A stretch of DNA of 64,000 bases, taken from positions 248,001 to 312,000 of the forward strand of contig NW_026570264.1 in NCBI RefSeq assembly GCF_019649055.1. Reading direction: 5' to 3'. A program made the translations under genes and the position numbers. Below are positions 1,491-59,505 of this stretch, piece by piece. Source of the stretch: Paramacrobiotus metropolitanus. Its lineage: Eukaryota > Tardigrada > Eutardigrada > Parachela > Macrobiotidae. Positions within the stretch are counted from its first letter, which is position 1. The number at the start of each line of letters is the position of its first letter. The notes below the pieces were generated by a model. It was not told the origin of the DNA, searched no databases, and saw nothing but the letters and a program-made list of their open reading frames with translations.

Positions 1491-1689
1491 CAGGAAGAAA
1501 ACAAATGCCTTTTTTTATATTATAAAAACAGCGACGCAGAAGACAGACTCATGTAGATCCCGCAAAACATGCGACCATTGAGTATACAACATGCATGGGG
1601 TAGTGAACGCTGATGAGTGTCGTATAGTTTTGATAAAACGATGAACGCCCTATCAGTCCGCCCACTCGTACTATGTAGAATACTTACTG

Positions 1690-2551: not shown

Positions 2552-5500
2552 TTACTGGAATCGCTGCAGGAATGACAATAAATACAGAGTCTGGGTTATC
2601 AGTTTGCGCTGTGGCGACTCGGTTAAAAGGGCTGCTCGAATGTCGGAAATGGTCCCGGGAGACGGACTGTTCCACCTACAAATAGTTCAGCAGTTTTATT
2701 TGAAGTGTACAGTACTTCGCAAGACTACATCGAATTAAGTTATGTGGACTGTTACTAGACAACGGTAAACCACTGCTTTGCACCGTAGTGGTTACGCTTC
2801 AAGGAAGTCGCTTTGTCGGACATTCGTGCATTACTCACAGCATAAAGGAGAGTCGCAGAAACGCCCATAGTAAATTTTCTGGCGCATGTTTGGGGAGTGG
2901 GAAAGCGTTTAACCCATCCAGCAGTCGTTCGAGCTTGCTGCTCTCCAGCTCGGGACAAAATACTTCGAACATGTGGAGAACAGACTCCGCATAATCCGCT
3001 TCCGCTGCTCCGACGAAACCGAATGACCACCTAATCACGCTGATCGAGAAGGTGTCCTCGTAGGAAAAGTACAGTTTGGCATCCAGCACATGCTGCACTC
3101 TTCCCGTAGCCGCATGGCAGATTTTCGGGAAATTCATGCACTTTTTGACATCAAACTCACAGTTTTGAAGCAGAATATTATCGCATACTGTTGCGAATTC
3201 CGGAGGCTTGTACAGGAACAGCTTATACACATCCGGTTCGATAAAATCCAGGTAGTAAGACGACTGAGGGAAGTTTATTAATTCTCCAATATACAGTTCC
3301 GTATTGTCAGTGACGACCAACCACTGAAGCTTCAGCGACAAGAAATTGAATAACTCGACCATAGAAAACAAGCAGAATTCCCACTTTCCGCATAGATACA
3401 AGGTACGGCACTGGTTTGTAACAGTTCGCGCCAGGTAATGGGCGCAGGCAAAATTTCCCTTCCAAATCCACGTACTGTACACTGATCCCTTGTCAGGATT
3501 CATCGTATCGTAGTCAGGACGCGTTGGCACAATGGCGCACGACTGGATCATGCTGGTGTTTAACAGGTGAAGAAATGTCCTACTTACCCTGTAATGCAAA
3601 GCAACATACAATAACCTTTTCAACAAGGACTCCTTAATTAACCCAGAATTATGACCTTGTAGGGTATCACCAGGTTTGTTGCTCTAAATGTGACTCGTAC
3701 AGGATAGAGGATCGCGTTAAAATCGGTATACAAAGTAAATCTGTGTAAAGGACCGCAAGATGACGCTAGTCCAGTAAATTCAGCTACGCAAATGTAGCAA
3801 AACCTGAATAATGCCGACCAAGAATGCATATGTCGAATAAAGCTGGAGAACCTTTCTACACTTTTATCGTCTACCTCTTGATGAAATTTTGGTGGAATAT
3901 GTCCAGATATGAAAAGACGACGACTTGAATTTCCAAGAATAGATTGCAGAAGCACGGCTCATCATCTCGAATCTCTACGAATTTAGGAAAAAAATTTGAA
4001 GGCAAGACGGCGACGTCGACACTGCTCAACAGGTGCCGACTTTTAATCTTGTAAATTATACAAGCACCTTGATGGCGCTGTGCAAGCTTGTCCCGTAATT
4101 TCTATCGTTAGGGTACAGATAGCATGTACCAAGTATTTAGCGCGAAAGTTGCGCTGTGATCGACTGCCACTAAACTACGCCTAGAATGACAAATTTATTC
4201 CTCTCTAGATTTAAGATCATTATAAGGGAAAAAAATAGTATTTTATAATTTTTACCGATAGTTTATAATTTAGACCGGTATTTGCTATACATCAGCTATG
4301 CCAGAAACATCTACAGTGTAAATAGTGTTGTGTGGCGTGCCGTGGTATAAAGTGTGGCGTAACCTGCAGATTTGTATTTGTTCGGTATGCTAATGCGATA
4401 GAAATTAGGGGGGCCGCTTGTACTAACAATAAACAGATGTTCATAGCAAATAAGTTTTCTTAGTACCGCCATGGTGCATTTTATGAACACCTGAAGTCGT
4501 GAACTATTCCGTGGTCCACACGTGAGCAGTTCTTCCTCATGTAATTTACCATATGAGGGGCTGCCGATCGCCAAGCGTTAAACGCTCTCTGTGTAATAGG
4601 TTAACAACTTTAAATTGAATGAAGAGCTGTCGCTCGATAACGGGGCGAGCGTTCGTTTAAATTACAGTACCTCCAAGGAGTAAAAATCAGTGTTTCGGCA
4701 CACCGACAATTTGCTGACCGCCACCTTGCTGACCAATAACTTGCGGACGACCTTTTGCTGAACGACAAAATGTTTGCCCGGCAATTTGTTGAAACGACAA
4801 CTTGATGATAGAAAGGAAAAGCGGCATGAGCCAAAAGGAATATGACTCATATGAGGACATGATAAAAATTTTAATACTAAGAAATCTAAAAAACCCAGTA
4901 AACGCGCTTAAGAAACAAAGAAACCAAAAAACCAGGCCAACACGCAAACTGTCGGTAACAAAAAAGTTATCGCAAAACGTCGGGCAGCAAAATTATAGGA
5001 AAGCGGATTGTCGGTCAGCAGTCTGTCGGTTAGCAGGTTGTGTTAATCCGCAACATGTCGATCAGTGAATTGTCGGGCAGCAGAACGGAGGTCAGCAAAT
5101 TGACGTGCTATCGCGTAGCTTAGCCGTCCTAAGTTCTCTCAGGTTTCTCAAGTTGTCTTAGGTTTCATAAGTTTTTTTTATAAGTCTTCCTACCTTTACA
5201 ATGCTGAACAGTGCAGCTCAAGCCATTCAGTATCTGGTCGACGGTCGAGCGCTGGATAATTAGCAAGCGTTCCACAAAATCCACTATCCATTTCTCCACT
5301 GGACAGCAGCGCTCATCGTCGACCCCGTCGTCTTCCTTCCCCACTGACTTGGGATATTCAGGGGAGAGCAGCACTTCTACATACTCATCGTGAACACTGA
5401 GTAGCATCCCGCTAGTTTTTCTCAGCCAGAAATCAGAAAATCGTGGAGACGAACATGCTGTTCTGAGCCAGCGGACTGAATGCGGATACTGTACGGACGC

Positions 5501-6043
5501 GTCGAACATCAACACGTGCGCTTTTTCAAACGCATCCCGTGGTACCAGTGGGCCGAGGCATCCGCGCTTGCGGATCCTCTGTGTCATCGCTGTTGGTCCA
5601 TCGATAATGGTGTAGCGAGCCGGCGTGGAATCCGGCTGGATGACCTCCACCGTGGCTATGGAAAACTGAAAACAACTGGACACGGAATTGTTCCCTTCCA
5701 TACCCGCACAACAAACGCTGTCAATCAACCCAGCTGGTGTCCAAGACGGTACGCCGCCGTCCCGGAGGGCGATGCGGACGTCAATATCGCCCGAATTCAA
5801 GCGGCTAGGTAATTCTTCGGGTTCTTCTTCCTTCACGCTCCATGCGCGACCAAACGGAATATGCTGCACTGTTTGGCCATCTAGTTTAACATAAAGGCCG
5901 TGTGCGTTCACATCGCAGACGTATCCTCGCATGAATTCACCTGCATCTCCCAGTACATCCACAACAAAGGGATCATACAGACCACGCGTCAATCGCATGG
6001 CATACTCCGGTTGGTGTATGGGGAATCCGAGGAAGGTCCCCAT
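2552..6043 (-). CDS. FAX-1: intact four-exon protein with FMRP-type Agenet-like modules and novel C-terminus (607 aa)
   Basis: Exons: 5194-6043, 3875-3974, 2839-3588 and 2552-2675; lengths 850+100+750+124 = 1824 nt, 608 codons including the stop. All junctions are GT-AG and phases match the other copies. Exon 1 has a first Agenet-like module (VDVLGDAGEF, RGYVCDV, then VPFGRAW at about residues 28-72). A second follows (SGDIDVRI, SWTPA, VATVEV, YTIIDGP, about 88-165). A region like the FMRP KH0 fold comes next (FWLRKTSGMLLSVHDEY). Exons 2-4 give an acidic helix, a long domain with IIQSC-like, WxWKG and LARTVT motifs, and a conserved tail SPQRKLITQTL. The Agenet match is from family knowledge; the exon 3-4 domain is unrecognised. 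FMRP-type Agenet modules bind methyl-lysine or RNA-protein partners; whether this one does is unknown. Confidence 0.8.
4685..5105. mobile_element. MITE-like foldback with TTGCTGACC-type subterminal repeats
   Basis: Inside intron 1 of FAX-1. The left part repeats TTGCTGACC / TTGCTGAACGAC words and the right part repeats the complement (GTCGGTCAGCA, GTCGGTTAGCAG, CGGGCAGCA). The two sides form an imperfect inverted repeat of roughly 110 bp with a spacer of about 170 bp. There is no coding capacity. Exact ends and target duplication are not clear. Confidence 0.5.
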
Positions 6044-12669: not shown

Positions 12670-15600
12670 ATGCCTATGGGAAAATGTCTTATGTTCCCTC
12701 TACACAGGCCAGAATACTCCTTACAATCTGAAAGTGGTCGGTATGATCCATTTGTTGTGGATGTACTGGGAGCAGCTGGTGAGTACATGCGAGGATATGT
12801 CTGTAATGTGGATGAACAGGGCCTGACGGTTAAGCTGGACGACCTTACGGTGCAGCATGTCGCTTATGGTCGCGTATGGAGTGTTAAAGAACCCGATTTC
12901 GGAGAATCAACAATGAAGCGGAACTCGGGTGATATTGACGTTCGCATCGACCCCACAGACAGTGGCGTGACGTCGTGGACCCCCGCTCGATTAGTTGACA
13001 GCATTCATTGGAGTAGGGAATGGTACCATGACTACCATCGTAGGTCTTGCCGGTATTCTGTAGTCACAGTGGAAGTGTCCCAACCGGATACAACCGTTGC
13101 GCAGTACACCGTCATTGATGGACCCACAGCGCTGACACAACGGGTGCGTAAACGCGGGGATCTCGGCCCAGTGGTCCAACGAAATGCCTTTCAGAAAGTT
13201 CTCGAGCCCATGTTCAATCCGTCAGAGAAATATCCGCATCCCGTGCGCTTTTTGAAAACAGCGTGTTCGTTCCCACGATTCCATACATTCTGGCTGAGAG
13301 ACACTCACACGATCTTACTTGGCCTTCATGATGAGTATATGGAGCTGCTGCTCTCCCCTGTGCGAGCTAAACTTTACAACATGTTGAAAGAGGACTACAT
13401 TGCCGGCAATGGCCGCAATGACGATTGTGCTCCAGTGCGGAAATCGATAGCGGATTGTGTGGAAGGCTTGTTCATTATGCAGCGTTGGACAGTCGACGAA
13501 ATACTTGGTGGATTGGTCTGCACTGTTCTACAGTCAGAAGGTATTACAGTAAAACATAGGAATACCAGTAACAAATATTCTATTTTATGGCTTCTCTAGA
13601 AACAGCGGAATCCATTCCCGCTCGGAATTAATGTGATCCTTCACTGCCAAAACCAGTAAAGGATCACTTCTTTACACATAATGTGCTTTGACAACGTTAC
13701 GATTTTGCAGAGTTTCGTGACGGTGAGCCATGCTTTAGTGAGCTAATCTTGGAAATTCAAACCCTGATCTACTCGAATCTGGACATATTCCATCAGAATT
13801 TATTTAAAAGGTAAACACACGGTGGTGCTTTGACGAATGTCTTAACAAATGCCGTCTAGATAGCGCAAGACAGTTTTCGCAGTATAATGCCTTGTTCGAA
13901 TTATCGGACCTACGTTCGTTACTAAATTTTTGAGTTACTCTTCTGTAATCAGTACATTAATCGCTCCAGCTGTAGTGGAGCCGTTGAGGGGCAAATACGA
14001 TTTTAACAATTCTTGGACATTTTCGTAGAAAATTGTGGTGCAGTCATACCTTAACATTTGACTAGAGAATTAAGGATTAAAAGTGTTATCTTTGCTTTCT
14101 GCCTATCTTTAGTCAAACAAAGTATGACCCGTGGTTCTATGGGCGAAGGAGGACATTTTTTTACATTTTGACGTCTCTTCCGTCATTGCCAGTACTTATC
14201 GTGCATGAAAAATAATTATTGTGCATGAAAAATTGATAACCAGGTTTTACGAACAGACAGTAAGGTTTCTTCAACAAAACTAAGGTGGTGGTAAGAACAA
14301 TTTGAATAAACGCTATCCTACCAGTCAATCGATTCTTTGTGGAAAACTGAACGAAGTGGCTATTTTGCCGCAGTGTTTGCGGCTAAATAGCCAGTTGGCT
14401 ATTTTGCCGCACTAGGGTGGGCGAAATAGCTTGTTGGCTATTTTACCGCACACTGCGTTAAAATAGCTGCTCAGCTATTTTGCCGCACTATGGTCGGCAA
14501 AATAGTCAGTTGGCTATTTTGCCACACCATTATCGCAGCCTGTCTCGCCGCACGCTTTCACACCTATAGCCCATTTCGTACCACGCTATAAAATGGGCCC
14601 GTCTTTTTGTTCCACGTAATCCAAGTATTCCTATGTATGCCACAAGTATTCTTCCCGTAGGCTGTCCGTGTTTATAAGCGCATTTTAGATTTCACAAAAC
14701 AAGTTCCGTCCAGTTCCACATTCGGGTAGAAGTTGGCGTTACGGGTTGATTTACGTCCGTTCGCGACGTAAGGCGCCGTAACCCAACGTCGTTGGCTGAC
14801 GCGTAAAAACTACCTGCCTTACGTGGATCTGTGCAACGGCTCAGCCTGACTGAGCGAGAAGGCAGCGTATGCTGCCTGTGGATCTTTGTTGTGTGCTCTA
14901 ACCGCCTCCCCGCGAGAAGGTTGGTCACGCTCTCGGCACTCTCGATTCGATTTGTGTTTCCAGCTGTACGTCACTGCAAGTGTGCATCCGTACAAGCATT
15001 TTAAACGCCGTTTTAATAGTCTGCTAACGTACTGTCTATCTGACGCGGTAGTTTCTAGTGAACGGAGCCTAAACCATGTGAAATCTAAAATTCCCTATAA
15101 TGTACTGTATTCTTCAGTGTATTTGAGTAGGTTTCTTAGCCTTCTTAGGTTTTGAACTACAGGGGTGCTGTGCCAAGTTCGGGCAGTTGCGTAAAATAAA
15201 TTATAAATATTCCCGTACGCCATTTTACTTTTGCTTCTTCACTTTTCCAGTATAACTTTTCCTTGCAAATCCAACAATTTCAAATGTTTAATCGTTTGAT
15301 TTGATAATAAGGAGCCAGCGGAACTTAAGGGGCTGAGGTGGAGGTAATTTTTCGGGGGCTTATAACTGGACCAATTCAAAATGTCTTAACAAATATTCTT
15401 GCGCGAACAATTTCGAAAACAGTTGAGTTACCCAGAAGTTTTCAAGGGTCGGCATAGGGACCTTGCAACATCAGAGCTCGAGGTGACCTCGGAACAAGGT
15501 GCATTTTCCATAGACTTGTATGTTAAAAAGTACCTACAGGGGAATGCGGCTGCCTAGAGCACCGATCCCATTAGGGAAGATTTTAGTGTTTAAACTGAAG

Positions 15601-18600: not shown

Positions 18601-21600
18601 ACGCTAGCGCGAAAACGACATCGGACCCAAGCCCGACATCAGCAAAACCCGTCGGAAAGTGACACCCGGACAACGGCGGCCAAGACTACAACGACCGACA
18701 TCGAGGATGATCCTTGCCGCCGACATAAACTAATCCGGCCTCGGCGAGACGCCAGAAATACGGCGCCGGAGTAACTGACGGAAGAAGAACCGCGGTAGTG
18801 ACGCGATCGACCGGGTTTTGCAGCAACCCACCGGAAAATCCGGGAGGCGCCGTGCCGGGCTGATATCAAAAGTTCATCCTGTCGGGTGTGCCGCAATCGT
18901 CCACCACGGCGATCAGGTTCCTCGTGTTAGGCTGTTTCTTCCGCCGGTCAGATCCATCGCTCAGGATGGTTCGTGCGGCCGTGGCGTTTGATCTTGAAGC
19001 CTCCTATCTGTCCCCGTCTGTTTAGACTGTCCGTCCGGCTTCGGTGGGTTTGTCCGCCTCGCCGCATCGGTAGTCTGGGGTGCCGTGCCGTTCAATCCCA
19101 CCGAACCGAGGAAACGCGAAGTAGCACTCCGCGGCGCCGATCTGTCGTCAGATTTGTCTCCAAACCGGCTACTCGTTTCTCAAGCTGTTCCGTTCGGTGT
19201 ATCATTGTTCCAAGTTCCTGTTCTAGGTTGACGTGTTTCAAAAAGACATGTGTCTGCTCCTTCGGATCTTTGACAATTCATGCGATGAACTCGGTTGACT
19301 TGACCAGAGATTTTTTGAGCTTTTCCTTGTACGCGTCCCTTCTTTTCTTGCCGTCCGAAGCTGTCGCTGTAGCATCTCTATTAAACGCTTCGGTTCTTTT
19401 GCTGCACTCCTGCCTAAGGTAGACGCTCTCGGTCGCGAAAATGTCCACCCGTTTTTGTAGTCGGTCGGTGACTTCTGCTATGTCCGCATTCTCCGTTCTC
19501 AGGGTGGTGATAGTTGCATACTTTTCCGCCAAAGTTGCCTTCTTCCGGTCCATCTTGTTCCGGGTGGCTGCTAACTGGACTACCAGATGAGCCGATTATC
19601 CGTTTATCGTGCCATCGGTGATCTTGTCCGGCGGTCCGCTAAGTTTCTGGAACTGATGGCCTTCCGGCGTCTGAAATACCGGTTCGTTCGGGTCGAGTTC
19701 TGTCCGCCCTCGGTGTTGATTCCGGGCTGCCGTCTGCCAGAAACAATGGAACAATTCCGGCTCGAACAGTGTTAACCGGCGACGGTATGGCCGACTCGCC
19801 CGTCAAGCGGTTGACTTAGCTCTCGGTCGAACTCTGCCGAGTGACCGTTGGTGCAAGCTGGTCCGCTCCAACCGGGCCGGGTGATCCGGCTGCCGTGCCG
19901 GGTTGCGATCCCCACTGCGGATTCCGCTACCCGTTTTCCGGATTGTGCGTTTCCCGGCTCGGTTTGGTCCGCAGTGTCCACCGGGACGCCGGGTAGCCGA
20001 GCGGGCGTGTGTGATGCTCGCCCTTCTTCAGAGTGCTGTCCATGCGTGTCCGGAGGGTGTTCCGTCCGTTTTGCTAAGTGCGGTCCGACTAAAGTGTCAG
20101 CTGGCTACAGACGTCTGCAACCGTCCAAAACGACCGGCGGTCGTCTCTAAGACGACCGCCGGTCGTTTTTGACGGTTACAGACGCGCACTACGCAAAATT
20201 CGCAATAAATGACTAATATCTGTCCGGTGTTAGTTCGTTATGGCAAACAAAATTATTCTGATAAATTTTCGGACACATAAAAACATTTCTTACCTTTGCC
20301 AAAATTTTAAATAACACCAACATTACTTTCCAGTCTAATGAAATCGACTTTTGATCGTAGGTGCACCTGAGGCGAAGGCGACAATGTCTTTTGTCTCGTC
20401 TATGTTAACGTAACCTTCTGTATAACCCAAAATTCTTTTTACTTGCATGAATATCCAAACTCGTAGCGTAGCTCGCACGCTCGTTACACGTTCTTTAAGA
20501 AATAGCAAATCCAAAAAAAATTGCCAGCACTAGTTGTTAGCCTATCATGTCGAGGGAACCGATAATTAGTGCGGGCATTTTAAAGAAATGTGTTGGCAGA
20601 GTTGCCTCTTATTACGGAGTGTTCCTTATTAAAATTATCCTATTCCCGTCCATAGTGCGGCAAAATAGCTAACGAGCTGTTTTAACGCAGTGTGCGGTAA
20701 AATAGCCAACAAGCTATTTCGCCCACCATAGTGCGGCAAAATAGCCAACTGGCTATTCCGACGCAGTGTGCGGCAAAATAGCCTGAGGGCTATTCAGACC
20801 TTATTGTTATGCTGCGGCAAAATAGCCATAGCCAAAACTAAATTTAGTACGCCAAAGCATGTAGTATAACTATACTGTACTTCAACTGGATAGGCGGACC
20901 TCCAGTCAAACTGACGAAATGACCGGTTCAGTTTGTCAGTTCGGGACACCAGTCGCTCCAGTAGAGGTGTTTCCATCAGCTTCTACTGAAGTGTACCATT
21001 TCCTTTATCATCATAACATGTCATAACTGCCGGTTGTTACGATACGTTGCTTTGCGTTACAGGGTATGTAAGGCAACTCAACACCTGCTAGACTCACGTA
21101 TAATCCAGTCGTGTGTCATTATGCCTACGCGGCCTCTCAGTGAAGCTCTGCATCCTGATGCTAAGACGTCAACATACAGTACCTGGATGTGGAAGGGAAG
21201 TTTCGCCTACACCCACTACCTGGCTCGAACTGTCACGAGCCACTGCCGTACTTTGTGCCTCGTCGGAGAAAGGGAATATTGCCTGTCTTTCTTGGTCGAC
21301 TTACTGAATTTCTTGTCACTGAAGCTAAAGTGGCTGGTCGTCACTGACAACGCGCAGTTGTACATCCATGAACTGTTTGATTTTCCTCAGCCGACCAATG
21401 TCTTAACCTTGACCAAGGCGGATGTGTACATGTTGTTTCCTTACAAGTCTCCAGAATTCCGAACAATATGCGATAATATCCTGCTGCGAAATTGTGTGTT
21501 CGATGCGAAGGAGTCCATTAACTTTCCTATAATATGTGACAACGGTAGTATGATGGACATTGACAACGAACTGTTCATCCGATACGAAGACACATTCTTG

Positions 21601-22617
21601 ATCAGCGTGGCTCATTGGTCGTTCAGTTTTGCCGGTACAACGAAAGCGGATTATTTGGCGTCAGTTCGCAGGATTTTCGAAGTAGGTTGTCCAGAACTGC
21701 AGACCACAAAGGTGTATCGTCTTCTGGATGGCTTAAACGCTTACCCTGTTCCCAAACATTTGCCAGAGGATTTACTGTGAGCGTTTCTAAGGGCTTCTTT
21801 TGTGCTGTAAGTCAATACTGATTCCTTGCCGTCCGTTTTGTGGCTTCTAGCAACTGTTTTTGCAGTAACGCAGCGTTAAAGTCAAAGAATTCATTTATAA
21901 ACCAAATTTTCTTTGCCAGTTGGTAGTCAAGCCAGTCAGCATTTCATTACGCAGATCTATATTTGGCGCTTAATGAAGGCTATATTAGCGCTTAGAACTA
22001 TATTTATCGTAATGAGAACTTGTGTTCTTTACGGCAGATCGTCCTTACTGCAGGGGCTCGTTCGACACCAATCTCCAAGCAATTCTGGTTATTCTTATTT
22101 AACAATTTAGTATTTTATAATTATTTGACAGGCATCAGCCATGCGAGATGCATGTAACGCGTAAGAGTATGGCGTGACGCGCCATTTTATAGGGTTTGGC
22201 GTAATATGTGAATGCAGGTACATCTTTCGCTCTCTTTAGGATAAAATAAATTAAAATTAAAGATCTGCAATTTGGATTTAACATCTTCTGCCGATTGTTC
22301 AAGTAGTAACTCCATATTGCAGTGTAATTAATTTTTGGACGGGCTCGCATACGTTACTAATAAGCACCGCAGTTTAAGCATTTGATGGAGAGCCGAGTTT
22401 CTCAGTCGTCGAAAATGAACTTCAAGAAGACAAGAACAGCAGCTCTATGAGTTCTTCGGCAACACTGGGTGCTCAGTAAAGTGGCTGTTGAACTATTTGT
22501 AGGTGGGACAGTCCGACTCCGAATACCATTTCTGACATTCGGACGGCCATTCTGACCGAGTCGCCTCAGCGGAAACTGGTGACCCAAACGTTGCATCTAT
22601 TACCATTCTTGCAATAA
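12670..22617 (+). CDS. FAX-2: FAX gene with a 7.25-kb intron and a late nonsense codon
   Basis: Exons: 12670-13540, 13711-13810, 21063-21806 and 22503-22617, all GT-AG with family phases. Exon 1 carries the Agenet-like modules (RGYVCNVDEQGLTVKLD, SWTPARLVDSI, YTVIDGPTALTQR). Exon 3 starts RVCKATQHLL and runs to PEDLL, where the tryptophan codon seen in FAX-1, FAX-3 and FAX-5 is TGA (21778-21780). The product would be 562 aa instead of 609, losing the last 47. Exon 4 itself is intact and still encodes SPQRKLVTQTL. Intron 2 is swollen by a composite insertion at 14358-20827. The gene may make a truncated protein or be newly inactivated. The start follows FAX-5 and FAX-3; an in-frame second ATG is two codons on. 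Confidence 0.7.
15159..16233. mobile_element. Tc1/mariner-like element, non-autonomous or decayed (1.08 kb)
   Basis: Terminal inverted repeats CAGGGGTGCTGTGCCAAGTT at the left and its near complement (AACTTGGCGTAGCACCCC) at the right, flanked by TA on both sides. That is the target duplication of Tc1/mariner. A relative with the same ends lies at 50427-51544. Internal words such as GGGGGCTTATAACTGGACC match the relative in inverted orientation. No intact transposase frame. It is nested inside the 6.5-kb element. Confidence 0.65.
16622..17790. repeat. 15-bp minisatellite (CACAGCCGGGAACGG), about 78 copies
   Basis: Almost perfect tandem array of a 15-mer. At least six units have lost one G (14-mers near 17070, 17085, 17205, 17264, 17457 and 17516), and CATAG variants occur near 16994 and 17069. 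Pairs of 14-mers are spaced 59 bp apart twice (17205/17264 and 17457/17516), showing block duplication inside the array. The unit has no stop in any frame, so very long frames cross it on both strands (pentapeptides GTAQP or AVPFP). They are a composition artefact, not genes. Confidence 0.95.
17819..17981. repeat. 43-bp palindrome arms beside the minisatellite
   Basis: 17819-17862 (CATTGCCGTCGCACGGTTCC onward) recurs as its reverse complement at 17938-17981. The spacer contains ACTTGGAATACTTGGATTACGTGGAACAAAA-type sequence that is found again, inverted, at about 14594-14640 near the left end of the large element. It looks like a foldback relative. Confidence 0.75.
17990..20220. other. GC-rich cargo segment of the large element; no intact gene recognised
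   Basis: Distinctly richer in G and C than the surrounding AT-rich DNA. Many overlapping open frames exist on both strands, as expected from composition. The one that reads most like protein is minus 19278-19577: a lysine/glutamate-rich coiled-coil-like stretch (ATLAEKYATITTLRTENADI), open from a TAA near 19592. It has no recognisable partner domains. This could be the decayed coding part of the element. Confidence 0.4.
20119..20177. repeat. Strong GC-rich hairpin (27-bp arms, 5-base loop)
   Basis: AACCGTCCAAAACGACCGGC... pairs with GACGACCGCCGGTCG...GACGGTT across TCTAA. It lies at the edge where GC-rich cargo gives way to AT-rich DNA, so it may mark an end of a nested element. Confidence 0.8.
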
Positions 22618-22629
22618 TTCCATAAAAGA

Positions 22630-28239: not shown

Positions 28240-28440
28240 ACCTATGAGAAACTCCTAGTATTCCCAATCTACCAGCCGGAGTATGCCACACACGGGTCTG
28301 GACGAGGTCTGTATGATCCGTTTGTTGTGGAATGTGGATGTATTTGGAGATTCTGGTGAATATCAACGTGGCTACGTGTGCGATGTGGGTGAAAACGGCC
28401 TATCCGTGAATCCGGACGCTCATACGGTACACTGTGTAGA
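28240..28440 (+). pseudogene. FAX-6: 5' fragment of FAX exon 1
   Basis: Reads LLVFPIYQPEYATHGSGRG then LYDPFVV, after a one-base shift at the start, followed by a 5-base insertion (GTGGAATGTGGATG). It continues as DSGEYQRGYVCDVGENGLSV and stops matching near 28440. Closest by eye to FAX-5. The remaining exons are absent. Confidence 0.75.
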
Positions 28441-29444: not shown

Positions 29445-32400
29445 TTATTGCAAGAAAGGTAATAGATGCAGCGTTTGGGTCACCAGTTTCCGCTGAGGAG
29501 ACTCTGTCAGAATGGCCGTCAAAATGTCAGAGATGGTATCGGGAGGCGGACTGTCCCACCTACAAATCGTTCAACAGCCACTTTAGTGCTTTACCCTGCT
29601 GTACCCAGTTCGCCCGAAATGGGCTCATACTGTAGCGCTGCAGTTCTTGAGGCTGTCTAACGTTTTTGACGACTGAGAAATTCGGATCGCCATCATTGTT
29701 TAAACTGCGCTGCAAAAATCATGAACAAGCCCGTCCAACAATTTATTTCACTGCACTTATCCAATCGGCTGGAGATTTTAACTCTGAACTGCGGTCCAGT
29801 GATTTTAATTTATTTAATTTTTAAAGAAAGCGAAAATGTATCTAAATTCAAATATTACGCCGAAATCCATAAAACGGCGCATCACCCCATACGCTTTACA
29901 TGGCATGGCTGATGCCTGTCAAATATTGGGAAAATAGTCATATGTATTGTTAAATAAGAATAATCAGAATTGCTTACAGACTGGTGCTCGCGCTCGAACG
30001 ATATCCGCTGTAGTAAAGAACGAAATGCCGTAAAGAACCCAATTTTTCATCACGATAAGTAAAGTTACAAGCGCTAATATTGCCTTCATTAAGCGCAAAA
30101 TGCACACCTGCGTAGAAAATTGCTGAACGGGCTTGACTAATGACTACCAACTCACAATACAAGAAATTTGCGTTTACAAATGATTGGAGGGTCATATACG
30201 TCGCGCTACTGCAGAACCAGTTATCAAGAAGACACAAAAGAACGGCAGCACATCAGTATATACTACTTACAGTACAAAAGAGGCGCTTAGAAACGCCCAC
30301 AGTAAATTCTCTGGCAGATGTCTGGGAACTGGGAAATCGTTTAAGCCATCCTGCATACGGTGCAGCTTTGTGCCCTCCAGTTCCGGGCAACATACTTCAA
30401 AAATCCCGCGAACTGACGCCAAATAATCCGCTTCGTTGTATCGGCAAAATTGAACGATCAATGAGCCACGCCAATATAGAATGTGTCCTAATATCGGTCG
30501 TACAGATCGTTGTCCACACATTCCGTGCTACCGTTACGACATATTATAGGGAAATTAATGGACTCTTTCGCATCAAACACACAATTGCGAAGCAGGATAT
30601 TATCGCATATTGTTCGGAATTCTGGAGACTTATAAGGAAACAACATGTACACATCCGCCTCGGTCAAAGTTATGACATTGGTCGGCTGAGGAAAATCAAA
30701 CAATTCATGGATGTACAATTGCGCGTTGTCAGTGACGACTAGCCACTTTAGCTTCAATGACAAGAAATTCAGTAATCCGACCAAGGAGAACAGACAGTAT
30801 TCCCACTATCCAACGAGACACAAAATGCGGCAGTGGTCCGTGACAGCTCGAGCCAGGTAGTGGATACAAGCGAAACTTCCCTTCCACATCCACGTTCTGC
30901 ATGATGAGAGCTCATCAGGATTCACGGCATCATTAATAGGCCGCATCGGCATAATGACACACGACTGGATTATACTGGAGTTTAACAAATGTTGAAACGC
31001 CTTACTAACCCTGTAACGCAAGCAACATATCGTGGCAACCGGCAGTTATAACATTACCAAATTCTAATTAATTTTAACGGTTAAGAATCCGTTTATTAGT
31101 TTATTTTACCGTTTATCTGATTTTGTCTTCCCATTATTTAGTTTTGTAGAAGAAACGTTGCTTCCTAAAACCTGGTTACCTATTAATAATTTTTTATGCA
31201 CGGTAACGGCAGAGGCGGTCAGAATGAAGGCATCGGTCATGTTTTGTTGGACTAACAAAGTATGACCGCGCAACGCGCATTTGTTTTTTGATTTTTGAAG
31301 AATAGAGTCGAATTTTTAAGGATTCTGATGTTACCAAGTGAATGCTGATCCGACGTAAACGTGTTCGGGGAAGCCCCTTGTAAAAATAGGCAGGAAGCCA
31401 AGATAAAACTTTTAACTATGCCGTTAAATAGTAAGGTTTGACTGCACCATAATTTTGTATAAAACGTTTCAAGAATTTTTGAAACTTATTTGTCTCAACG
31501 ACTCCATTGCAGATGAAATGACTAATGTCCAGATTGTGTATAGTAGAATAATTAAAAAATTTAATGAACTGTGCAGCATTCACGAGATTCTGTGTTTCGT
31601 CCTTTCTGCTTCTTGGCTCCTTCTCTAATCCTATGTCTCTTCACATCACATCTTTACTGTTTCTCTAGCTACACTTCTTTACTTCTCAAGCTCAAGTTGG
31701 ATCTTGCTACGATCCCAAACAGCTATAAAGCTGCGCGTACAAGCTACCGACACTAACCTTACATAACCCAACGTAGGCCCGATAATTCGAACCAGACATT
31801 ATCTGTATATTGGACAAACTGCTTTGCGCTACCTAGAAAGCATTTGCTGAGACGTTCACTAAAGTACCGACGGTATACCTTTTAAATAAATTTTGATGGA
31901 ATATGTCCAGATTCGAGTAGATGAGGATTTGAACTTCCAAGATTAGCTCATCAAAGCATGGCTCATCGTCACGAAACTCTGCAAATCAGAAAGGCTTCGA
32001 AGCTAGTTACCTAGTGACCCATTTACTAATTTTAGCAGCGAAGGATCGCATCAATTCCGAGTTTCAGGAGCATCGTTTCTAGAGCGGAAAATATTTGTGG
32101 CTATTTCCTAGTGCTTGCATGTCTTCATACCTTCTGACTGTAGGACGGTGCAGGCCAGGCCACTGAATATTTCACCGACTGTCCAGCGCTGCATAAGGAA
32201 CAAGCCTTCCACAAAATCCGCTATCGATTTCCGCACTGGAAGATAATCGTCATTGTGGCCTTTGCCGGCAGTGTAGTCGTGTTTCAACTTGTTATAAAGT
32301 TCAGCGCGCTTAGGGGCGAGCAGCAGCTCCATATACTCATCGTGAAGGCCAAGTAACATTGTGTGAGTGTCTCTCAGCCAGAATGTATGGAATCGTGGGA

Positions 32401-32989
32401 ACGAACACGCTGTTCTCAGAAAGCGCACGGGATGCGGATATTCCTCTGACGTATTGAACATAAGTTCGCGGACTTTTAGAAAGGCATTCCGTTGGACCAC
32501 TGGGCCGAGATCTCCGCGTTTACGCACCCGCTGCGTCAGCGCTGTGGGTCCATCAATAAGGGTGTACTGCGCAACGGTTGTATCCGGAAGGGTCACCTTC
32601 ACGGTGACGACGGGATATCTGCAAGAACTACGGAGGTACCATTCCGTACCGGTACACCGAACGCTGTCAACCAATTGAGCAGGCGTCCAGGACGCTACAC
32701 CACTGTCCGTGGGGCTAATGCGAATGTCAGTCTCGCCCGAGTTTAGGTTCATAGTTGATTCTTCGAAAACAGGTTTTTTAACAATCCATACGCGACCATA
32801 AGGGATATGCTGCACCGTATGGGCGTCCAGCTTAACGGTCAGGCCCTGTTCGTCCACATCACAGACATATCCACGCACGAATTCACCAGAAGCTCCAAGT
32901 ACATCCACAACAAATGGATCATATAAACCGCATCCGGATTGTAAGGAGTACTCCGGCCTGTGTATAAGGAGTACGAGAAATTTTGCCAT
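29445..32989 (-). pseudogene. FAX-3: FAX gene with an intact first exon but disabled exon 3
   Basis: Exons: 32131-32989, 31879-31978, 30271-31010 and 29445-29559. Exons 1, 2 and 4 are open and keep their splice sites; exon 1 starts MAKFLVLLIHRPEYS. Exon 3 has TAG after LCLVG, a second TAG after the DLYDRY position, TGA in place of a tryptophan, and a one-base loss near the AKADY position. Exon 1 is very close to FAX-2, and intron 3 (about 710 bp) is shared with FAX-2 and FAX-4. The terminal tail reads SPQRKLVTQTLHLLPFLQ. A product of exons 1-2 alone would still contain the Agenet-like modules. Confidence 0.75.
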
Positions 32990-37275: not shown

Positions 37276-40275
37276 ATGGACTATGGGAAAATTCCTTGTA
37301 TCTATATTCCCAATCCACCAGCCGGAGTATATCTCATACGGGTCTGGAGATGATCTATCTGATCCATTTGTAGTGGATATATGGGGAGATTCTGGTGAAT
37401 TCGAATGTGGTTAAGTGTCTGATGTGGATGAACACGGCCTGTCCGTTAAGCTGGACGGCCATACGATACGTTGTGTTCCTTTCGGCAGCGCATGGTGTTG
37501 AGAATAGGGATTTCCCAGAATCAGCTCTACCTTAACTCGCCCCCACCTATTTGGCCCCACCGACATGAGCGTGGCGTCGTGGACGCCAGCTCGGTTGGCT
37601 AACAGTATTTTGTGCGCGTGTACAGAAATGTACAACTGTAGCTCGTGTCCGTACTTTGTCGACACGGTTGAAGTGATTCAGCCGGGCACAACGCTAACAC
37701 GTTATACCGTTATTGATGGACCAACGGCACTGACTCAACGACTGCGCAAGCGTGGAGATTTCGGCCCACTCGTTTTTCAAAAGGTCCACATGCAAAAGTT
37801 CGACGCATCCACAGAATATCCGCATCCACAGCGCTTACTGAGAGCTGCACATTCATCTGAACGGTTCCGGAATTTTTGGCTGAGAGTAACCCGCACGATG
37901 TTACTTACCCTGCACGATGAGTATAAGGAAGTACATATGTGCTGTATATGGAATTATATAGGGAGAAAACGTAAACGCGTTCCACCGTTCCCCTGTATTG
38001 CTGCCGTCACCCGGCTGGAGTGTGACGTTACGGCAATTCATATGGCTAAATATGACGCGGTACATAAGCGCCATGTTTAGCCATAACGTTACACTGCAGC
38101 CGGGTGCCGGCAACAATACAGAGGAACGGTGGAACACATTTACTTTTTCCCCCTATACAGGTATAATATATGGAAGTATATGGATGTATAATTATATGTA
38201 CTGCGGCCCCCTGACTACGATAAGTATTGTTCGAGGGAGGATGACGGCAATTAGGGCGATGACCATTGCTGTCCGGTGTGGAAATCTGTAAGGGATTTCG
38301 TGGATCGCTTGGCACCACGAAAGAGGGTTAAATAATTTTTTTAAGAAATAAAACGCATGGACACAGTTTCTAAACAAGCTGGATCTAATGGCAATTTAAT
38401 ACCGTTTTTTTTTATTATGTTCTGGTTTTCCGATCTTGATGTCTCAGCTTTTTTGAAGTTATACTACACAGTAGATCTTGTTCCTGGATAAATACGTAGC
38501 AATACTTCACACATGAAACTGATGAAAGTGATGAAACTATTAAAACCGTGGGAAAACAAAATCTGATAAACGCTATCCTACCAGGTCAGTCGATTCTTTA
38601 CGGTAAAATAGACTGGGTACTTATCGGTAAATGATAAGTCTGGTACACCATAGTATGTTATAACTTTCGCTTGTTGCTTTCGATACGTTGCTTTGCGTCA
38701 CAACGTAAGTAAGGCGTTGCAACATCTAAACTCCAGTTTAATCCAGTTGTGTGGTATTACTATTACGCCGACGCAGCCTATGCATCCTGATGATAAGAAC
38801 TCAGCCTACGGTAACATCTATGTGGAAGAGGAATTTCGGTGGCATCCACTACCTGGCTCGAACTGTCACGGACCACTGCCGTATTTTGTGAGAGTGGGAA
38901 TACTGTCTGTTCTCCTTGGTCGGATTACTGAATTTCTTGTCATTGAAGCTAAAGTGGCTAGTCGTCACTGACAACGCGCAATTGTACATCCATGAATTGT
39001 TTGGTTTTCTTCAGCCGACCAATGTCTTAACCTTGACCGAGGCGGACGTGGACATGTTGTTCCCTTACAAATCTCCGGAATTCCGAACAATATGCGATAA
39101 TATCCTGTTGCAAAATTGTGGGTTCAATGCGAAGGAGCCCATTAATTTTCCTATAATATGTGGCAACGGTAGTATGATGGACGCTGACAACGAACTGCTC
39201 ATCCGATACGAAGGCACATTCTTTATCAGCGTGACTCATTGGTCGTTCAGTTTTGCCGGTAAAACGAAAGCGGATTATTCGGCGTCGGTTCGCAGGATGT
39301 GCGAAGTATGTTGTCCACAACTGGAGGACACAAAGCTGCACCGTCTGCTGGATGGCTTAAATGCTTTCCCACCCCCCAGACATCTACTTGAGGATTTACT
39401 GTAGGCGTTTCTAAGCGCCCCTTTTGTGCTGTAAGTAGTAAGTATTGATCCGCTGCCGTTCGTTTTGTGTTTTTTCAATGACGTTTGTGTGTCCACAGTA
39501 ACGCAACGTCAATGGCCCTGAAATTACGAGTATTGGTGAACCAAAATTTTTTTTATAGTACTAGCGTGGATTAAGACTTGGAAGTCAAGACTCAAGCCCG
39601 TTCAGTATTTTATTACGCAGATGTACATTTGGCACTAATGAAGGTTATACATGTATTATTGCTTAAAATTAAACTTTTCCTAATGGGAGATTGTATTCTT
39701 TACGGTAACGGGCAGATCGTTCTTAACTTCAGCGGCTATCGTTCGAGCACCAATCACCAAGCAATTCTGCTCATTCTACAAAATGCTTACAAAATGCAAT
39801 TGTTTTGAGTAAAGCCATCGTGCCGTGTTACGGAGTTCGGCGTAATATGTGAGTTTATGTATATTTTTCGCTCACTTTAAAAATTAAATTAATTAGAATT
39901 AATTGAATGCAATTTGGAGTTAGCATCTCCTGCCAAATTGATAAGTGGTAACTCGGTGTAACGATATAGCAGCGTAATGAATTGTTGGACGGAATTGTAT
40001 ATGTTTCATGAACACAATGCAGTTTACATGTTTGATGGAGAGCCGAGTTTCTCAGTCGTCGAAAACATTAGACAGCTTCGAGAACTGCAGCTTTAAATTA
40101 GTCTACAAGCCGTTTTAGGCAGCACTAGGAGCACGGTAAAGTGGCTGTTGAAATATTTGTAGGTGAAACAGTCCGCCTCCCGATACCATTTCTGACATTC
40201 GGACGGCCCTTCTGACAGAGTCGCCTAAGCGCCCAGCGGAACCTGGTAATCCCAACGCTGCTTTTATTACCATTC
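37276..40275 (+). pseudogene. FAX-4: mosaic FAX pseudogene
   Basis: Exon 1 (37276 to about 38330) resembles FAX-5 (SCPYFVDTVEVIQPGTT, TVIDGPTALTQRLRKRG) but has early frameshifts, a TAA near 37412, and a foldback insertion at 37936-38198. No exon 2 was found. Exon 3 (about 38704-39444) resembles FAX-2 (DNAQLYIHELFGF, TEADVDMLFPYKSPEFRTIC). Its acceptor AG is changed to AC, there is a frameshift before MVGLLNF-like sequence, and TAG replaces the tryptophan after EDLL. Exon 4 is degraded (about 40148-40275). Exon 1 and exon 3 therefore come from different subfamilies. Confidence 0.8.
37936..38198. mobile_element. Foldback MITE inserted in FAX-4 exon 1
   Basis: The exon is colinear with FAX-5 up to GAGTATAAGGAAGT and again from CTGCGGCCCCCTGA. 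The insert between them is palindromic: AACGCGTTCCACCGTTCCCC, GCCGTCACCCGGCTG and TATAGGGAGAAAA on the left recur as complements on the right (GGAACGGTGGAACACATTTA, CAGCCGGGTGCCGGC, TTTTTCCCCCTATA). Confidence 0.8.
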
Positions 40276-41193: not shown

Positions 41194-41204
41194 AGCTCGT
41201 CGGC

Positions 41205-55272: not shown

Positions 55273-58200
55273 ATGGAAAAGTTCCTTATATTCCCAATTC
55301 ACCAGCCAGAGTATGCCACACACGGGTCTGGAAATGGTCTTTATGACCCATTTGTTGTGGATATATGGGGAAATTCTGGTGAATTTCAGCGTGGTTACGT
55401 GTGTGATGTAGATGAACACGGCCTGTCCGTTAAGCTGGACGGCCATACGGTACAACGTGTTCCTTTCGGTCGCGCATGGCTTGTTAAACAACAAGATTTC
55501 CAAGAATCAGCTATCCATCTAAATTCGGGAGACGTTGATGTTCGCATCAGCCCCACCGACATGGGCGTGGCGTCGTGGACGCCAGCTCGGTTAGTAAACA
55601 GTATTTCGTGCGCGAGTACGGAAATGTACAAGTGTAGTTCGTGCCCGTATTCTGTTGCCACGGTGGAAGTGATCCAGCCGGGCACCATGGCAACACGATA
55701 CACCGTTATTGATGGACCAACGGCACTGGCCCAACGACTGCGCAAGCGCAGAGATCTCGGCCCACTCGTCCCACAGAAAGCCTTTCAAAAGGTCCACATG
55801 CGAATGTTCGACGCATCAGCGGAATATCCGTATCCAGAGCGCTTAATGAGAACTGCACGTTCATCTCCACGATTCCAGAATTTCTGGCTGAGGCTCACCC
55901 GCACGATGTTAGTTAGCCTGCACGATGGGTATACGGAAGTGCTGCTACCCCCTGATTTCGAGAAATATTGTTCGAGGGAGGATGACGACAACGAGGGCGA
56001 TGACCATTGCCGTCCGGTGTGGAAATCAATAGGGGATTTTGTGGATCGTTTGCTCGTAATGCAGCACAGGACCGTCGACCGAATACTGGACGGCTTGGTT
56101 ATCGCTCTTCTGCAATCACACGGTAAGAAGACTCCAAGCAGTAAACACCGTTACAACTTTCATTTAGTTGACACAGTCAGCAGAATAAAGTTCGACAGAT
56201 ATTTGATGTACAGTATATGCCGACAACGTTCATAATCAGTAATACGACTTCATGGGGCGTGTCAGGACGAGAACGAGGCCGGTCGCAAGTTCACTGCCAT
56301 TTATAATGGGGACAATGCGCAGCAGCAGGAAGATGGTCACACTGGCGGCAAAAACAATTATCACAAAAATCCTGAAGGTGCTAAATTTAATAATGGGGCT
56401 GAATATTTGCGATGTTTCAAGTGTTTGTTAACCTTTGCTTGGCACATTGCGGCTTGCCCTGCCGATGATTGCCGCCTAGTCGAAACCGAATGGAAAAGAG
56501 CAGCTCGTGGTAAAACTAAAATCAGTGAAGTGGATGATGGCGGTAATAGCCAAAAGGGGAAATGGAAGGGAGTTACAACAGTTAGTGGGAGTGCTTGTTT
56601 TATCATTTTATAAAAGGGGTGATAGAGGGCGGCAATAGTAGAAGCACACTCCTCATTAAAAATCTTAACAAATGTTTGAACACACCTAAATTTGTAAACA
56701 GGACAAAATGGAAAACCACGAAAATAAATTTATTCGTTCAACGTTGTAATTGCTACTAAAAGTTTTTTGACTATTACAAATAGAGAATGTTCACGTATAA
56801 CATCACTAAAGAAAAAAATAAATATTTTACCTGTTGGATTTACATATTTGAAAGCAATCCTGATTGAAAATGAAGATAACGAGATTCAAATTATGAATGG
56901 GGAATCATCCATTCAAACCGGCTTTGCTGATGCGCTCACTGTATCCTGTATTTCCGATCCTATTGCCCCTGTGATTTAGCAAGTGGGTTTGTGCACATCT
57001 GGACTCCGAAGCCCTTTAATATCCTTGTGCACTGCAGCACTATAAGAGATTTTTAAATGGAAAGCGATTTTTAATCGTAACCAGTACATGGCTAAAAGTA
57101 ACAGACTCATTAGCAACCTTGCATCGACGATTTCCTGATTTACAGAGATTCATGACAATGAGCTCTGCTTCGATGAACTATTCTTCGAAATCCAGCTATT
57201 TGTCTACTCATATCTGGATATATTCGACCAAAATTTAGTTAAAAGGTATGGAAATGGAAGTTCGGGTGATATTTTATTTCCACCAGTCTCAGACAAATGT
57301 TGTCTACTTGCCACAGTGTAATTTCTGCAATTTTGATTTACCGTGTGCATTATCTTTAACGTGGAATCGCATGCACCTATAAAAACTTACTTTTACTTTC
57401 ATGCTTTCATGCTTTTACTTGCTTTCGCCTATAGTGTAGAATATAGAACACAAAGTACAGAACACAGTACAAAATAAGAAAGTTCCTGTACATGTAATAC
57501 ATAATTAAGCTTTGATTATTGACAATACTCAAGAGCAATGGTTTTTGAACAGCTAATGCATTATTAATATCAGTCATTTAAGAAGATCTTGCTGGGAAGG
57601 TTACAATACGTCGATTGACATTATCAGGGTGAGCAAAACGTCTTTTAGCCTGGTCAACAGCAACATAATTCAGTCCTGCGTCAATGTGCCAACGCGCCCT
57701 ACCTTTGACGCCGTGAATCCCGACATTGCTGGATCAACACGCAGTCCCTGGATGTGGAAAGAAAGTTTCGCCTTTGCCCACCTCCTGGCTCGAACTGTCA
57801 CAAGACACTGTCGTATTCTGTGCATAATCGGGGAGTGGGATAATTGTCTGTTTTCCTTGGTGCAATTACTGAATTTCTTGTCGCTGAAGTTAAAGTGGCT
57901 GGTCATCGCTGACAATGCGGAACTGTACATTCGAGAGTTCCTAGATTTTCCTAAACCGAATAATGTCTTAAATTTTTCCGAACCGGATGTGTATACGGTT
58001 ACCTTTTACGAGTCGCCGGCATACGGAACAATTTGCGATAATATTCTGCTTCGAAATTGTGTGTTTCCTGTGCAAAATTCCATTACCTTTCCCGGTGTGC
58101 TCCATGAAGAGAAGATGCGTATCATTGACTGCCCACTGTACTTCCGCTACACGGACACGTTTTCTGTCAGCGTGACGAGTTATTCATTCAGTTTTATCGG

Positions 58201-58784
58201 CACAACGAAGGCGGATTATCTGGTTTCTGTTACCCACATGTTCGAAGTATTTTGTCCGGAGCTGGAAAGCATAAAACTGGACCGTCTGTTGGATGGCTTG
58301 AGCATTTTTCCCCTTCAAACACATCATCAAGGGCTATTGCAATGGGCGTTTATGCGAGCCTCCTTTATGCTGTAAGTAATGCACCACTATCGATTATTTT
58401 TATGGGTTTTTGACGTTCATTTGACCTTGCTGCACGGCTAATCGAAGTTAGGCTGTTGCATCTGTGCTGCTCAGAGTCTCAGCGCGACTGTTAAAAGCTT
58501 TCTGTCGAGGGGTTAGCTTTCAATAGACCTAACACCCAAGCTTCTGTCATTGCATCACAATACTTCCCGGCGGCTCGATAAAATAATGTCAGCAGGCTGT
58601 GAAAAGTCCCAGTACTTTTCTCATAGTAAAGTATCTAAAGTTGTTGGATCCGCTTTCTAGGTGGAGCAGTCCGTCCCCCGATACCATTTCCGATATTCAA
58701 AATGCCATCGTAAAGGGAGCATCACAGCGCAAACTTGTGACACAGACTCTGCATTTGTTAACATTCCTGCAGAGGCCCTTATAG
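55273..58784 (+). CDS. FAX-5: intact four-exon FAX gene (605 aa)
   Basis: Exons 55273-56122, 57146-57245, 57628-58371 and 58661-58784 (850+100+744+124 = 1818 nt, 606 codons with stop). It starts MEKFLIFPIHQPEYA. First Agenet-like module: VVDIWGNSGEFQRGYVCDVD, then HGLSVKLDGHTVQRVPFGRA. Second: NSGDVDVRISP, SWTPARLVNSI, VATVEVIQPG, YTVIDGPTALAQRLRKR. A KH0-like part carries NFWLRLTRTMLVSLHDGYTE. Exon 2 encodes HDNELCFDELFFEIQLF. Exon 3 starts RVSKTSFSLVNSNIIQSC and ends LLQWAFMRASFML. Exon 4 encodes SPDTISDIQNAIVKG and QRKLVTQTLHLLTFL. AATAAA lies 17 nt after the stop (58801-58806). No disabling change is visible. Cellular role unknown; an RNA- or chromatin-binding role is suggested only by the Agenet resemblance. 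Confidence 0.85.
56255..56613 (+). pseudogene. Zinc-knuckle-like retroelement remnant in FAX-5 intron 1
   Basis: An open plus frame with NDE-, Q- and G-rich sequence (NGDNAQQQEDGHTGGKNN), then RCFKC...WHIAACP-ADDC. This looks like a gag-type CCHC knuckle spoiled by a short insertion between its second and third ligands. It ends at a stop at 56611. AT-rich open sequence continues to about 56980. Probably a decayed gag. Confidence 0.4.
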
Positions 58785-59470: not shown

Positions 59471-59505
59471 AAAATGACCGTGATAACGTCTTTATCCATT
59501 GAACC

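What the first reader, a model, noticed from the sequence alone, without database searches (positions are those of the whole stretch)
2552..6043. A multi-copy gene family fusing FMRP-type Agenet-like modules to an unknown C-terminal domain
Seven traces of one four-exon gene occur in 64 kb, two of them fully intact (607 and 605 codons). The exon phases and the 100-nt second exon are identical in all complete copies, so the model is solid. The first exon matches the pattern VxVxGxxGxFxRGYVxDVxEHxLxV...VPF of FMRP/FXR Agenet 1, followed by a second SGDxxV...SWxPA module. Exons 3-4 (WxWKG...LARTVT, SPQRKLVTQTL) match nothing I know. A tandem-Agenet head on a new body, expanded in one lineage, could be an undescribed protein class.
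Basis: partly seen in the sequence, partly recalled or inferred. Interest (0 to 1): 0.82.

Follow-up and report, generated by a model that had tools for sequence, protein, structure and literature searches.

The report
Fragile-X-like F-box gene family in tardigrade
This tardigrade genome carries hundreds of copies of an exon that resembles the front part of the fragile X protein, many of them joined to an F-box, the part that plugs proteins into the cell's protein-destruction machinery; the fusion looks undescribed and may be a large set of target-recognition proteins.

Summary
The gene is real. Window 6043-2552 (-) has four exons (850/100/750/124 nt, 607 aa); a second intact copy at 55273-58784 (+) encodes 605 aa in the same phases. 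I find six traces, not seven.

Exon 1 is more than tandem Agenet: its AlphaFold2 model matches the whole FMRP N-terminal domain, Tudor1-Tudor2-KH0 (Foldseek E 7.8e-9; Z 11.6 over FMRP 2-199). Profile searches of the PDB agree for the Tudor part. The "unknown" body starts with an F-box rebuilt across the exon 2/3 junction (15 of 17 family segments, best E 1.1e-6), followed by a family-specific domain without a significant structural match.

The host is a eutardigrade, very probably Paramacrobiotus. At least 346 exon-1 places were found, broken copies included; three divergent members carry head and F-box in one open frame. The genome keeps a normal FMR1.

Likeliest role: substrate receptors of SCF ubiquitin ligases, multiplying by birth and death. 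The architecture rests on sequence and prediction; the function is inferred. I found no report of it in the library searched.

The parts
5194..6043 (-). copy 1 exon 1 (850 nt): FMRP-like N-terminal domain, Tudor1 (res ~25-70), Tudor2 (~85-160), KH0-like (~172-282)
3875..3974 (-). copy 1 exon 2 (100 nt): first part of the F-box
2839..3588 (-). copy 1 exon 3 (750 nt): end of the F-box, then family-specific C-terminal domain
2552..2675 (-). copy 1 exon 4 (124 nt) with stop codon
   Evidence: homologous exon-4 pieces near c2-c5
55273..56122 (+). copy 5 exon 1 (850 nt), intact gene of 605 aa
57146..57245 (+). copy 5 exon 2 (100 nt)
57628..58371 (+). copy 5 exon 3 (744 nt)
58661..58784 (+). copy 5 exon 4 (124 nt)
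12676..13540 (+). copy 2 exon 1, open
13711..13810 (+). copy 2 exon 2 (100 nt)
21063..21806 (+). copy 2 exon 3 with one in-frame TGA near its end (end placed by homology with copies 1 and 5)
22504..22623 (+). copy 2 exon-4-like match
32131..32989 (-). copy 3 exon 1, open
31879..31978 (-). copy 3 exon 2 (100 nt)
30270..31010 (-). copy 3 exon 3, interrupted by stops and a frame change
29466..29558 (-). copy 3 exon-4-like match
37283..40232 (+). copy 4, broken remnant (exon 1 pieces, exon 3 pieces, exon-4-like match)
28246..28438 (+). fragment of exon 1 in two frames

Best explanation
The gene encodes a substrate receptor of an SCF (SKP1-CUL1-F-box) ubiquitin ligase of a new domain architecture: FMRP N-terminal domain (Tudor1-Tudor2-KH0), then an F-box, then a family-specific C-terminal domain. 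Shown on sequence or by prediction: the exon structure, the FMRP-like fold of exon 1 (model), the F-box, the fusion in single open frames elsewhere in the genome, the conserved C-terminal domain and the large expansion. Inferred: the F-box docks on SKP1/CUL1; the FMRP-like head and/or the C-terminal domain hold the target; the target is ubiquitylated. Because copies multiply and decay in clusters, targets are probably varied or fast-changing (foreign or selfish proteins, or RNP components) and not one conserved housekeeping substrate.
For: Exon 1: profile A1 against the PDB gives FXR1 3kuf E 1.1e-5, then FXR2 and FMRP; AF2 model pTM 0.76, pLDDT 76.5; Foldseek ranks 1-10 all FMRP/FXR, best E 7.8e-9; VIA Z 11.6, 194 aligned residues, rmsd 6.4, against 4ova Tudor-Tudor-KH0, first non-FMRP/FXR row Z 7.7. 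A second, divergent set gives FXR1 E 4.2e-8 and FMRP 4qw2 8.2e-7; hhalign to FMRP E 8.1e-8 (A1) and 8.7e-12 (A4). FMRP W79 is conserved in 25 of 25 family rows. F-box: 15 of 17 rebuilt class I segments match PF00646 at E <= 0.1, best 1.1e-6. Single open frames with head and F-box above cut-off: L042, L063, L064 (the head of each is a match, E 7.8e-30, 3.2e-28 and 1.0e-23). Association: of 150 F-box places listed, 56 have a listed FMRP-like exon within 1.5 kb upstream on the same strand, against 0, 0 and 0 in the other three orientations; within 3 kb, 58 against 9, 4 and 1. Of 20 F-box loci I picked, 15 carry it upstream (leave-one-out E <= 5.7e-6; shuffled frames 0 of 20; opposite strand 1 of 20 at that level, L056, which looks like another gene copy). 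SKP1: four PF01466 matches over cut-off. Selection: dN/dS 0.22-0.38 in 11 comparisons.
Against: In the window copies the F-box scores below Pfam's cut-off (E 2.3 and 0.11 in the whole proteins; 0.0029 for the c1 segment) and lacks the proline near its start (5 of 17 class I rows have it; 12 of 14 class II rows do); its weight for SKP1 binding is recalled, not tested. The profile of the class I F-box reaches PDB F-box proteins only at E 0.84 and 1.5. Pfam finds no Tudor_FRX1 in L063 and L064 and only E 0.11 in L042. phmmer with L063 finds nothing in the PDB. The last helix of the KH0-like unit has low confidence (block means 50-75). SKP1 is not expanded (4 loci). Splicing rests on conserved signals, not on RNA reads. 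Overall purifying selection gives no sign of an arms race at this resolution. 13 of 53 class I exon-1 places have no listed exon 3 downstream, and 27 of 67 exon-3 places no listed exon 1 upstream. Genome-wide counts come from six-frame matches, not curated genes, and include broken copies.
Confidence: 0.75

Rival explanations
1. The window genes are F-box-derived proteins that no longer bind SKP1: the F-box is vestigial and the protein works as an FMRP-like decoy or scaffold in RNP granules.
For: Window-copy F-boxes are sub-threshold and lack the proline near the start; the FMRP-like head is kept, dN/dS 0.27-0.37.
Against: The F-box part is recognisable in 15 of 17 class I segments and often strong in class II.
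Confidence: 0.15
2. Methyl-mark reader that brings the ubiquitin ligase to methylated histones or methylated RGG proteins, as FMRP's tandem Agenet is proposed to bind.
For: Same Tudor-Tudor arrangement; in class II an aromatic residue sits at the F32 position in 8 of 11 rows and at Y96 in 5 of 11. FMRP F32L and/or Y96L weaken such binding (PMC5430443, passages).
Against: All 14 class I rows, including the window gene, have an aliphatic residue at F32 and none has an aromatic at Y96; the genome's own FMR1 has Ile at 96.
Confidence: 0.1
3. Two neighbouring but separate gene families (FMRP-like exon genes and F-box genes) that are only amplified together.
For: In the loci other than L042, L063 and L064 that I looked at, head and F-box lie in different frames or exons; no RNA evidence was available.
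Against: Three loci carry both modules in one uninterrupted frame of 362-478 codons. A phase-1 G|GT donor lies at the exon-1 end in 12 of 12 class I loci (I had set the ends by hand, so this is partly by construction), and exon 2 opens in the compatible phase in 13 of 15.
Confidence: 0.04
4. A mobile element or its domesticated remains.
For: Multi-copy, with broken copies; retroelement-like frames nearby by eye.
Against: Introns at conserved positions in divergent copies, no Pfam transposase or polymerase domain in the proteins scanned, purifying selection. No viral contigs relative for one exon-1 query.
Confidence: 0.02

Closest known systems
FMRP / FXR1 / FXR2 N-terminal domain (Tudor1-Tudor2-KH0)
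   Same: Predicted fold, order of the three domains, and profile similarity in Tudor 1-2; FMRP's KH0 also lacks the GxxG motif (PMC9603430, abstract and passages).
   Different: No KH1, KH2 or RGG follows; an F-box does. Sequence identity to FMRP in the structural alignments is 13-16%. Class I lacks the putative methyl-pocket aromatics. The genome has a separate, complete FMR1 (L021).
Lineage-expanded F-box families of Caenorhabditis (F-box with FBA_2 or FTH)
   Same: F-box followed by a divergent domain of 200-300 aa, tandem duplication, gene loss, tens to over a thousand copies (PMC8665587: 377 F-box genes in C. elegans, 1426 in C. remanei; abstract and passages).
   Different: Those carry the F-box at the N-terminus; here it is internal, after a complete FMRP-like N-terminal domain, and Pfam finds neither FBA_2 nor FTH in the two window proteins.
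Plant Agenet proteins
   Same: Tandem Royal-family barrels; ADCP1 Agenet 1-2 is the next-best fold (Z 7.7).
   Different: PF05641 has no match at E <= 0.001 in the genome; FMRP fits clearly better.

Membership tests
FMRP/FXR family | N-terminal Tudor1-Tudor2-KH0 | tested here: met
   (KH0 by predicted fold only)
FMRP/FXR family | KH1-KH2 tandem and RGG region after the N-terminal domain | tested here: not met
   Pfam scan of the 607- and 605-aa proteins to E 10 gives only Tudor_FRX1 and F-box; the genome's own FMR1 has KH1-KH2 by sequence match and RGG by eye. Hence not filed as an FMRP family member.
F-box proteins | F-box motif | tested here: met
   15 of 17 class I segments at E <= 0.1, best 1.1e-6; L040, L042, L063, L064 over cut-off; window c1 segment E 0.0029, below cut-off
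F-box proteins | binding to SKP1 and assembly into SCF | not testable with these tools
   needs biochemistry; SKP1 genes are present
F-box/LRR (FBXL) proteins | leucine-rich repeats after the F-box | tested here: inconclusive
   exon-3 model pLDDT 67, pTM 0.66; Foldseek best E 0.34; best VIA Z 4.9 (1ft8, TAP), with a ubiquitin ligase complex (4i6j chain B, FBXL3 by recall) at 4.0 and TIR1 at 3.4-3.6 among unrelated rows
Caenorhabditis FBA_2 / FTH F-box proteins | FBA_2 or FTH domain after the F-box | tested here: inconclusive
   no Pfam match to either up to E 10 in the two window proteins; HMMER filters can drop weak matches
Plant Agenet family (PF05641) | Agenet Pfam model | tested here: not met
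   0 matches at E <= 0.001, 7 candidates scored
Methyl-lysine-reading Royal family | aromatic residues at FMRP pocket positions F32 and Y96 | tested here: not met
   window gene and class I: 0 of 14 at either position; class II keeps them partly, 8 of 11 at F32 and 5 of 11 at Y96

The most novel reading that the evidence does not exclude
Tardigrades (at least this lineage) built an intracellular recognition repertoire of several hundred SCF ligase receptors by joining an FMRP-type RNP/chromatin-docking domain to an F-box, so that a fragile-X-like head selects what is destroyed: for example parasite, virus or transposon RNP proteins, or components of stress-induced RNP granules during desiccation. 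It would be an animal counterpart of the giant plant and nematode F-box repertoires, with an RNP-directed head.
Probability: 0.3. Interest if true: 0.87.

Novelty: new variant of a known kind. Interest (0 to 1): 0.74.

Why it matters
FMRP's N-terminal domain is medically important and, as far as I recall, known only in the small FMR1/FXR family. Here a module of that kind is found at no fewer than 346 places (broken copies included) and is joined, where examined, to the ubiquitin system. I found no report of the combination: 'tardigrade + F-box' gave 9 papers, none about a tardigrade F-box family by title and start of abstract; 'F-box, Tudor, FMRP, gene family expansion', three of four terms, gave 9, none on it by title and start of abstract; 'tardigrade, fragile X, FMR1, Agenet' gave 5,185 with the 10 listed all about fragile X, so it tells little. 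If true, it puts tardigrades beside nematodes and plants as lineages with exploded F-box repertoires, supplies natural variation for asking what each residue of the FMRP head is for, and gives testable candidates for tardigrade innate immunity or stress biology.

Tried and rejected
Plant-type Agenet: rejected, PF05641 found nothing at E <= 0.001. Exon 3 as a known fold: Foldseek and VIA gave nothing significant; TIR1 and 4i6j chains appear at Z 3.4-4.0, which means little. A tree of exon 1 (27 rows) puts class I, class II and FMR1 each on one side of a branch, but is unrooted and cannot say whether the fusion arose once. The class I F-box profile reached PDB F-box proteins only at E 0.84 and 1.5, and phmmer with one single-frame fusion gave no PDB match. 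Viral and prokaryotic collections with one query each: no relative. Exon 2 was not found by my scan in 2 of 15 loci (L030, L035). My first guess for exon 3 (a frame at 3913-3641) matched no other copy and was dropped. Presence in other tardigrades could not be tested: no other animal genome is held.

Selection of rows: the 20 F-box loci and the 20 loci were picked by me, not at random. Without an upstream match: L043, L044, L054, L058, L061; for L054 one search lists an exon-1 match 2.45 kb upstream, beyond the stretch fetched. Eight of the 11 rows of profile A4 come from those F-box loci, which is why I left each out in turn. In one search the opposite strand gave L056 (5.7e-41) and a weak L050 (0.21). 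Scoring is capped at 150 candidates (of 1080, 1064 and 831; one search reports 162 matches and lists 150), so counts are lower bounds; the 346 places include fragments and copies with stops. For the F-box rows, L053 was dropped because my pattern did not place it.
Full report
OBSERVATION. The gene at 6043-2552 (-) was rebuilt from the sequence: exons 6043-5194, 3974-3875, 3588-2839 and 2675-2552, introns GT-AG, 607 codons. The copy at 55273-58784 (+) has exons of 850, 100, 744 and 124 nt in the same phases and 605 codons. tblastn and profile searches of the window show six traces: the two intact genes, three interrupted copies and one fragment; I did not find a seventh. dN/dS is 0.27-0.37 in seven exon-1 comparisons and 0.22-0.38 in four exon-3 comparisons, so these are, or were until recently, real protein-coding genes.

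WHERE IT IS. The window is contig C44 of a 169.8-Mb assembly in 533 contigs. Size and longest contig (C1, 4,484,719 bases) fit the published Paramacrobiotus sp. TYO assembly (170,483,395 bases, longest scaffold 4,484,941; PMC8277472, passages), although that has 684 scaffolds. The genome holds an FMR1 gene with the N-terminal domain and KH1-KH2 by sequence match and an RGG-rich tail by eye (L021), so the family is not a mis-annotated FMR1.

EXON 1. A profile of 14 exon-1 proteins from the genome (A1) finds FXR1, FXR2 and FMRP first in the PDB (E 1.1e-5 to 0.0019, over the Tudor 1 to start of Tudor 2 region; the next rows are L-seryl-tRNA(Sec) kinase at 0.014-0.015). The AF2 model shows two five-stranded units and then strand-helix-helix-strand-strand-helix; the last helix is of low confidence. 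Foldseek ranks FMRP/FXR structures 1-10, and VIA-align covers model residues 22-264 against FMRP 2-199, the structure titled Tudor domains plus KH0 (Z 11.6; the FMRP N-terminal domain entries 11.2 and 11.0; Tudor-only FXR entries 8.9-9.6; first non-FMRP/FXR row 7.7). The rmsd is large (6.4 A), as expected if domains sit at different angles, so the KH0 assignment rests on topology and order more than on close superposition. A second set of divergent exon-1 proteins (A4, 11 rows) gives FXR1 at E 4.2e-8 and FMRP at 8.2e-7, the next rows being ribosomal protein uL24m at 0.46; hhalign joins A1 to A4 (E 1.8e-12), A1 to FMRP (8.1e-8) and A4 to FMRP (8.7e-12). FMRP Trp79 is conserved in all 25 family rows; the pocket positions F32 and Y96 hold no aromatic residue in the 14 class I rows and partly do in class II (8 and 5 of 11).

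EXONS 2-3. The junction of exons 2 and 3 rebuilds an F-box. In the window proteins it is weak, but in 13 of 15 class I paralogues exon 2 could be placed, and of the 17 joined segments 15 match PF00646 and 12 match F-box-like at E <= 0.1, best 1.1e-6 and 4.9e-7. More divergent members (class II) have stronger F-boxes, and three carry head and F-box in one uninterrupted frame: L042 (478 codons, F-box 1.2e-4), L063 (362 codons, 1.4e-9) and L064 (395 codons, F-box-like 5.3e-9). Their heads are matches of the exon-1 search (E 7.8e-30, 3.2e-28, 1.0e-23); Pfam's Tudor_FRX1 is weak in L042 (0.11) and not reported in the other two. This supports fusion without relying on splicing. The C-terminal domain is conserved across class I (17 rows) and distantly shared with class II (hhalign probability 91%, E 9.7e-7, partly through the F-box end). 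No solved structure matches it significantly.

HOW MANY. Exon-1 searches with three queries list 55, 150 and 150 matches (the last two capped; one search reports 162), merging to 346 separate places on 96 contigs, broken copies included. Class I exon 3 has 65 and 68 matches with two queries at E <= 0.01, and 40 of 53 class I exon-1 places have an exon 3 within 10.5 kb downstream on the same strand; 27 of 67 exon-3 places stay unpaired. The F-box model had 1080 candidates; the 150 scored all passed its cut-off. Of these 150, 56 have a listed FMRP-like exon within 1.5 kb upstream on the same strand (median 455 bases) and none in the other three orientations; within 3 kb the numbers are 58 against 9, 4 and 1. 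Both lists are capped, so 56 is a lower bound. In 20 F-box loci that I chose, 15 show the head upstream by leave-one-out profiles. SKP1 itself has only four matches.

MECHANISM. The best reading is an SCF substrate receptor: F-box to SKP1/CUL1, FMRP-like head and/or C-terminal domain to the target. The step from F-box to SCF follows from the established role of F-box proteins and is inferred here. Clusters, many copies and broken copies resemble the nematode F-box families, for which recognition of foreign proteins in innate immunity has been proposed (PMC8665587, passages); I regard a defence or genome-conflict role as plausible, not shown. A curiosity from the literature is that human SCF-Fbxo4 binds FMRP/FXR proteins and has FXR1 as substrate (PMC5688124, search listing with start of abstract); here the two modules are in one chain.

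VERDICT. Both domains are known; the architecture and its scale are, by the searches named, undescribed: a new variant of a known kind, with high interest.

Noticed in passing
G000 genome-wide: The F-box repertoire as a whole is very large: 150 of 150 scored candidates pass the cut-off, 1080 candidates in the first look. Some sampled F-box loci (L043, L044, L058, L061) showed no FMRP-like exon within the stretch fetched.
   Followed up: partly
G000:C106:65813-65929, C209:97496-97603, C106:35488-35625: Tudor_FRX1 matches over the cut-off in short frames (94-102 codons), possibly a further FMRP-Tudor group with another gene structure.
   Followed up: no
window 591-1514 (-) and 59503-60174 (+): Two paralogous, hydrophobic (by eye multi-pass membrane) proteins flank the cluster; 31% identity, E 6e-24, no Pfam match at E <= 0.1.
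   Followed up: partly
window 26264-27490 (-): Serpin frame inside the array, Pfam E 7.6e-39.
   Followed up: partly
window 16628-17793: Minisatellite of 78 units of 15 bp (98% matches) inside the 7.2-kb intron 2 of copy 2, open in several frames.
   Followed up: partly
window 36187-36879 (-) and 40738-41205 (-): Similar cysteine-containing frames that look by eye like the end of a retroelement polyprotein, on both sides of broken copy 4; no Pfam match at E <= 0.1 for the first, the second not scanned.
   Followed up: no
G000:C36:17448 and C36:341041: Two nearly identical class I exon-1 copies about 324 kb apart (dS 0.005): a very recent duplication or an assembly effect.
   Followed up: no
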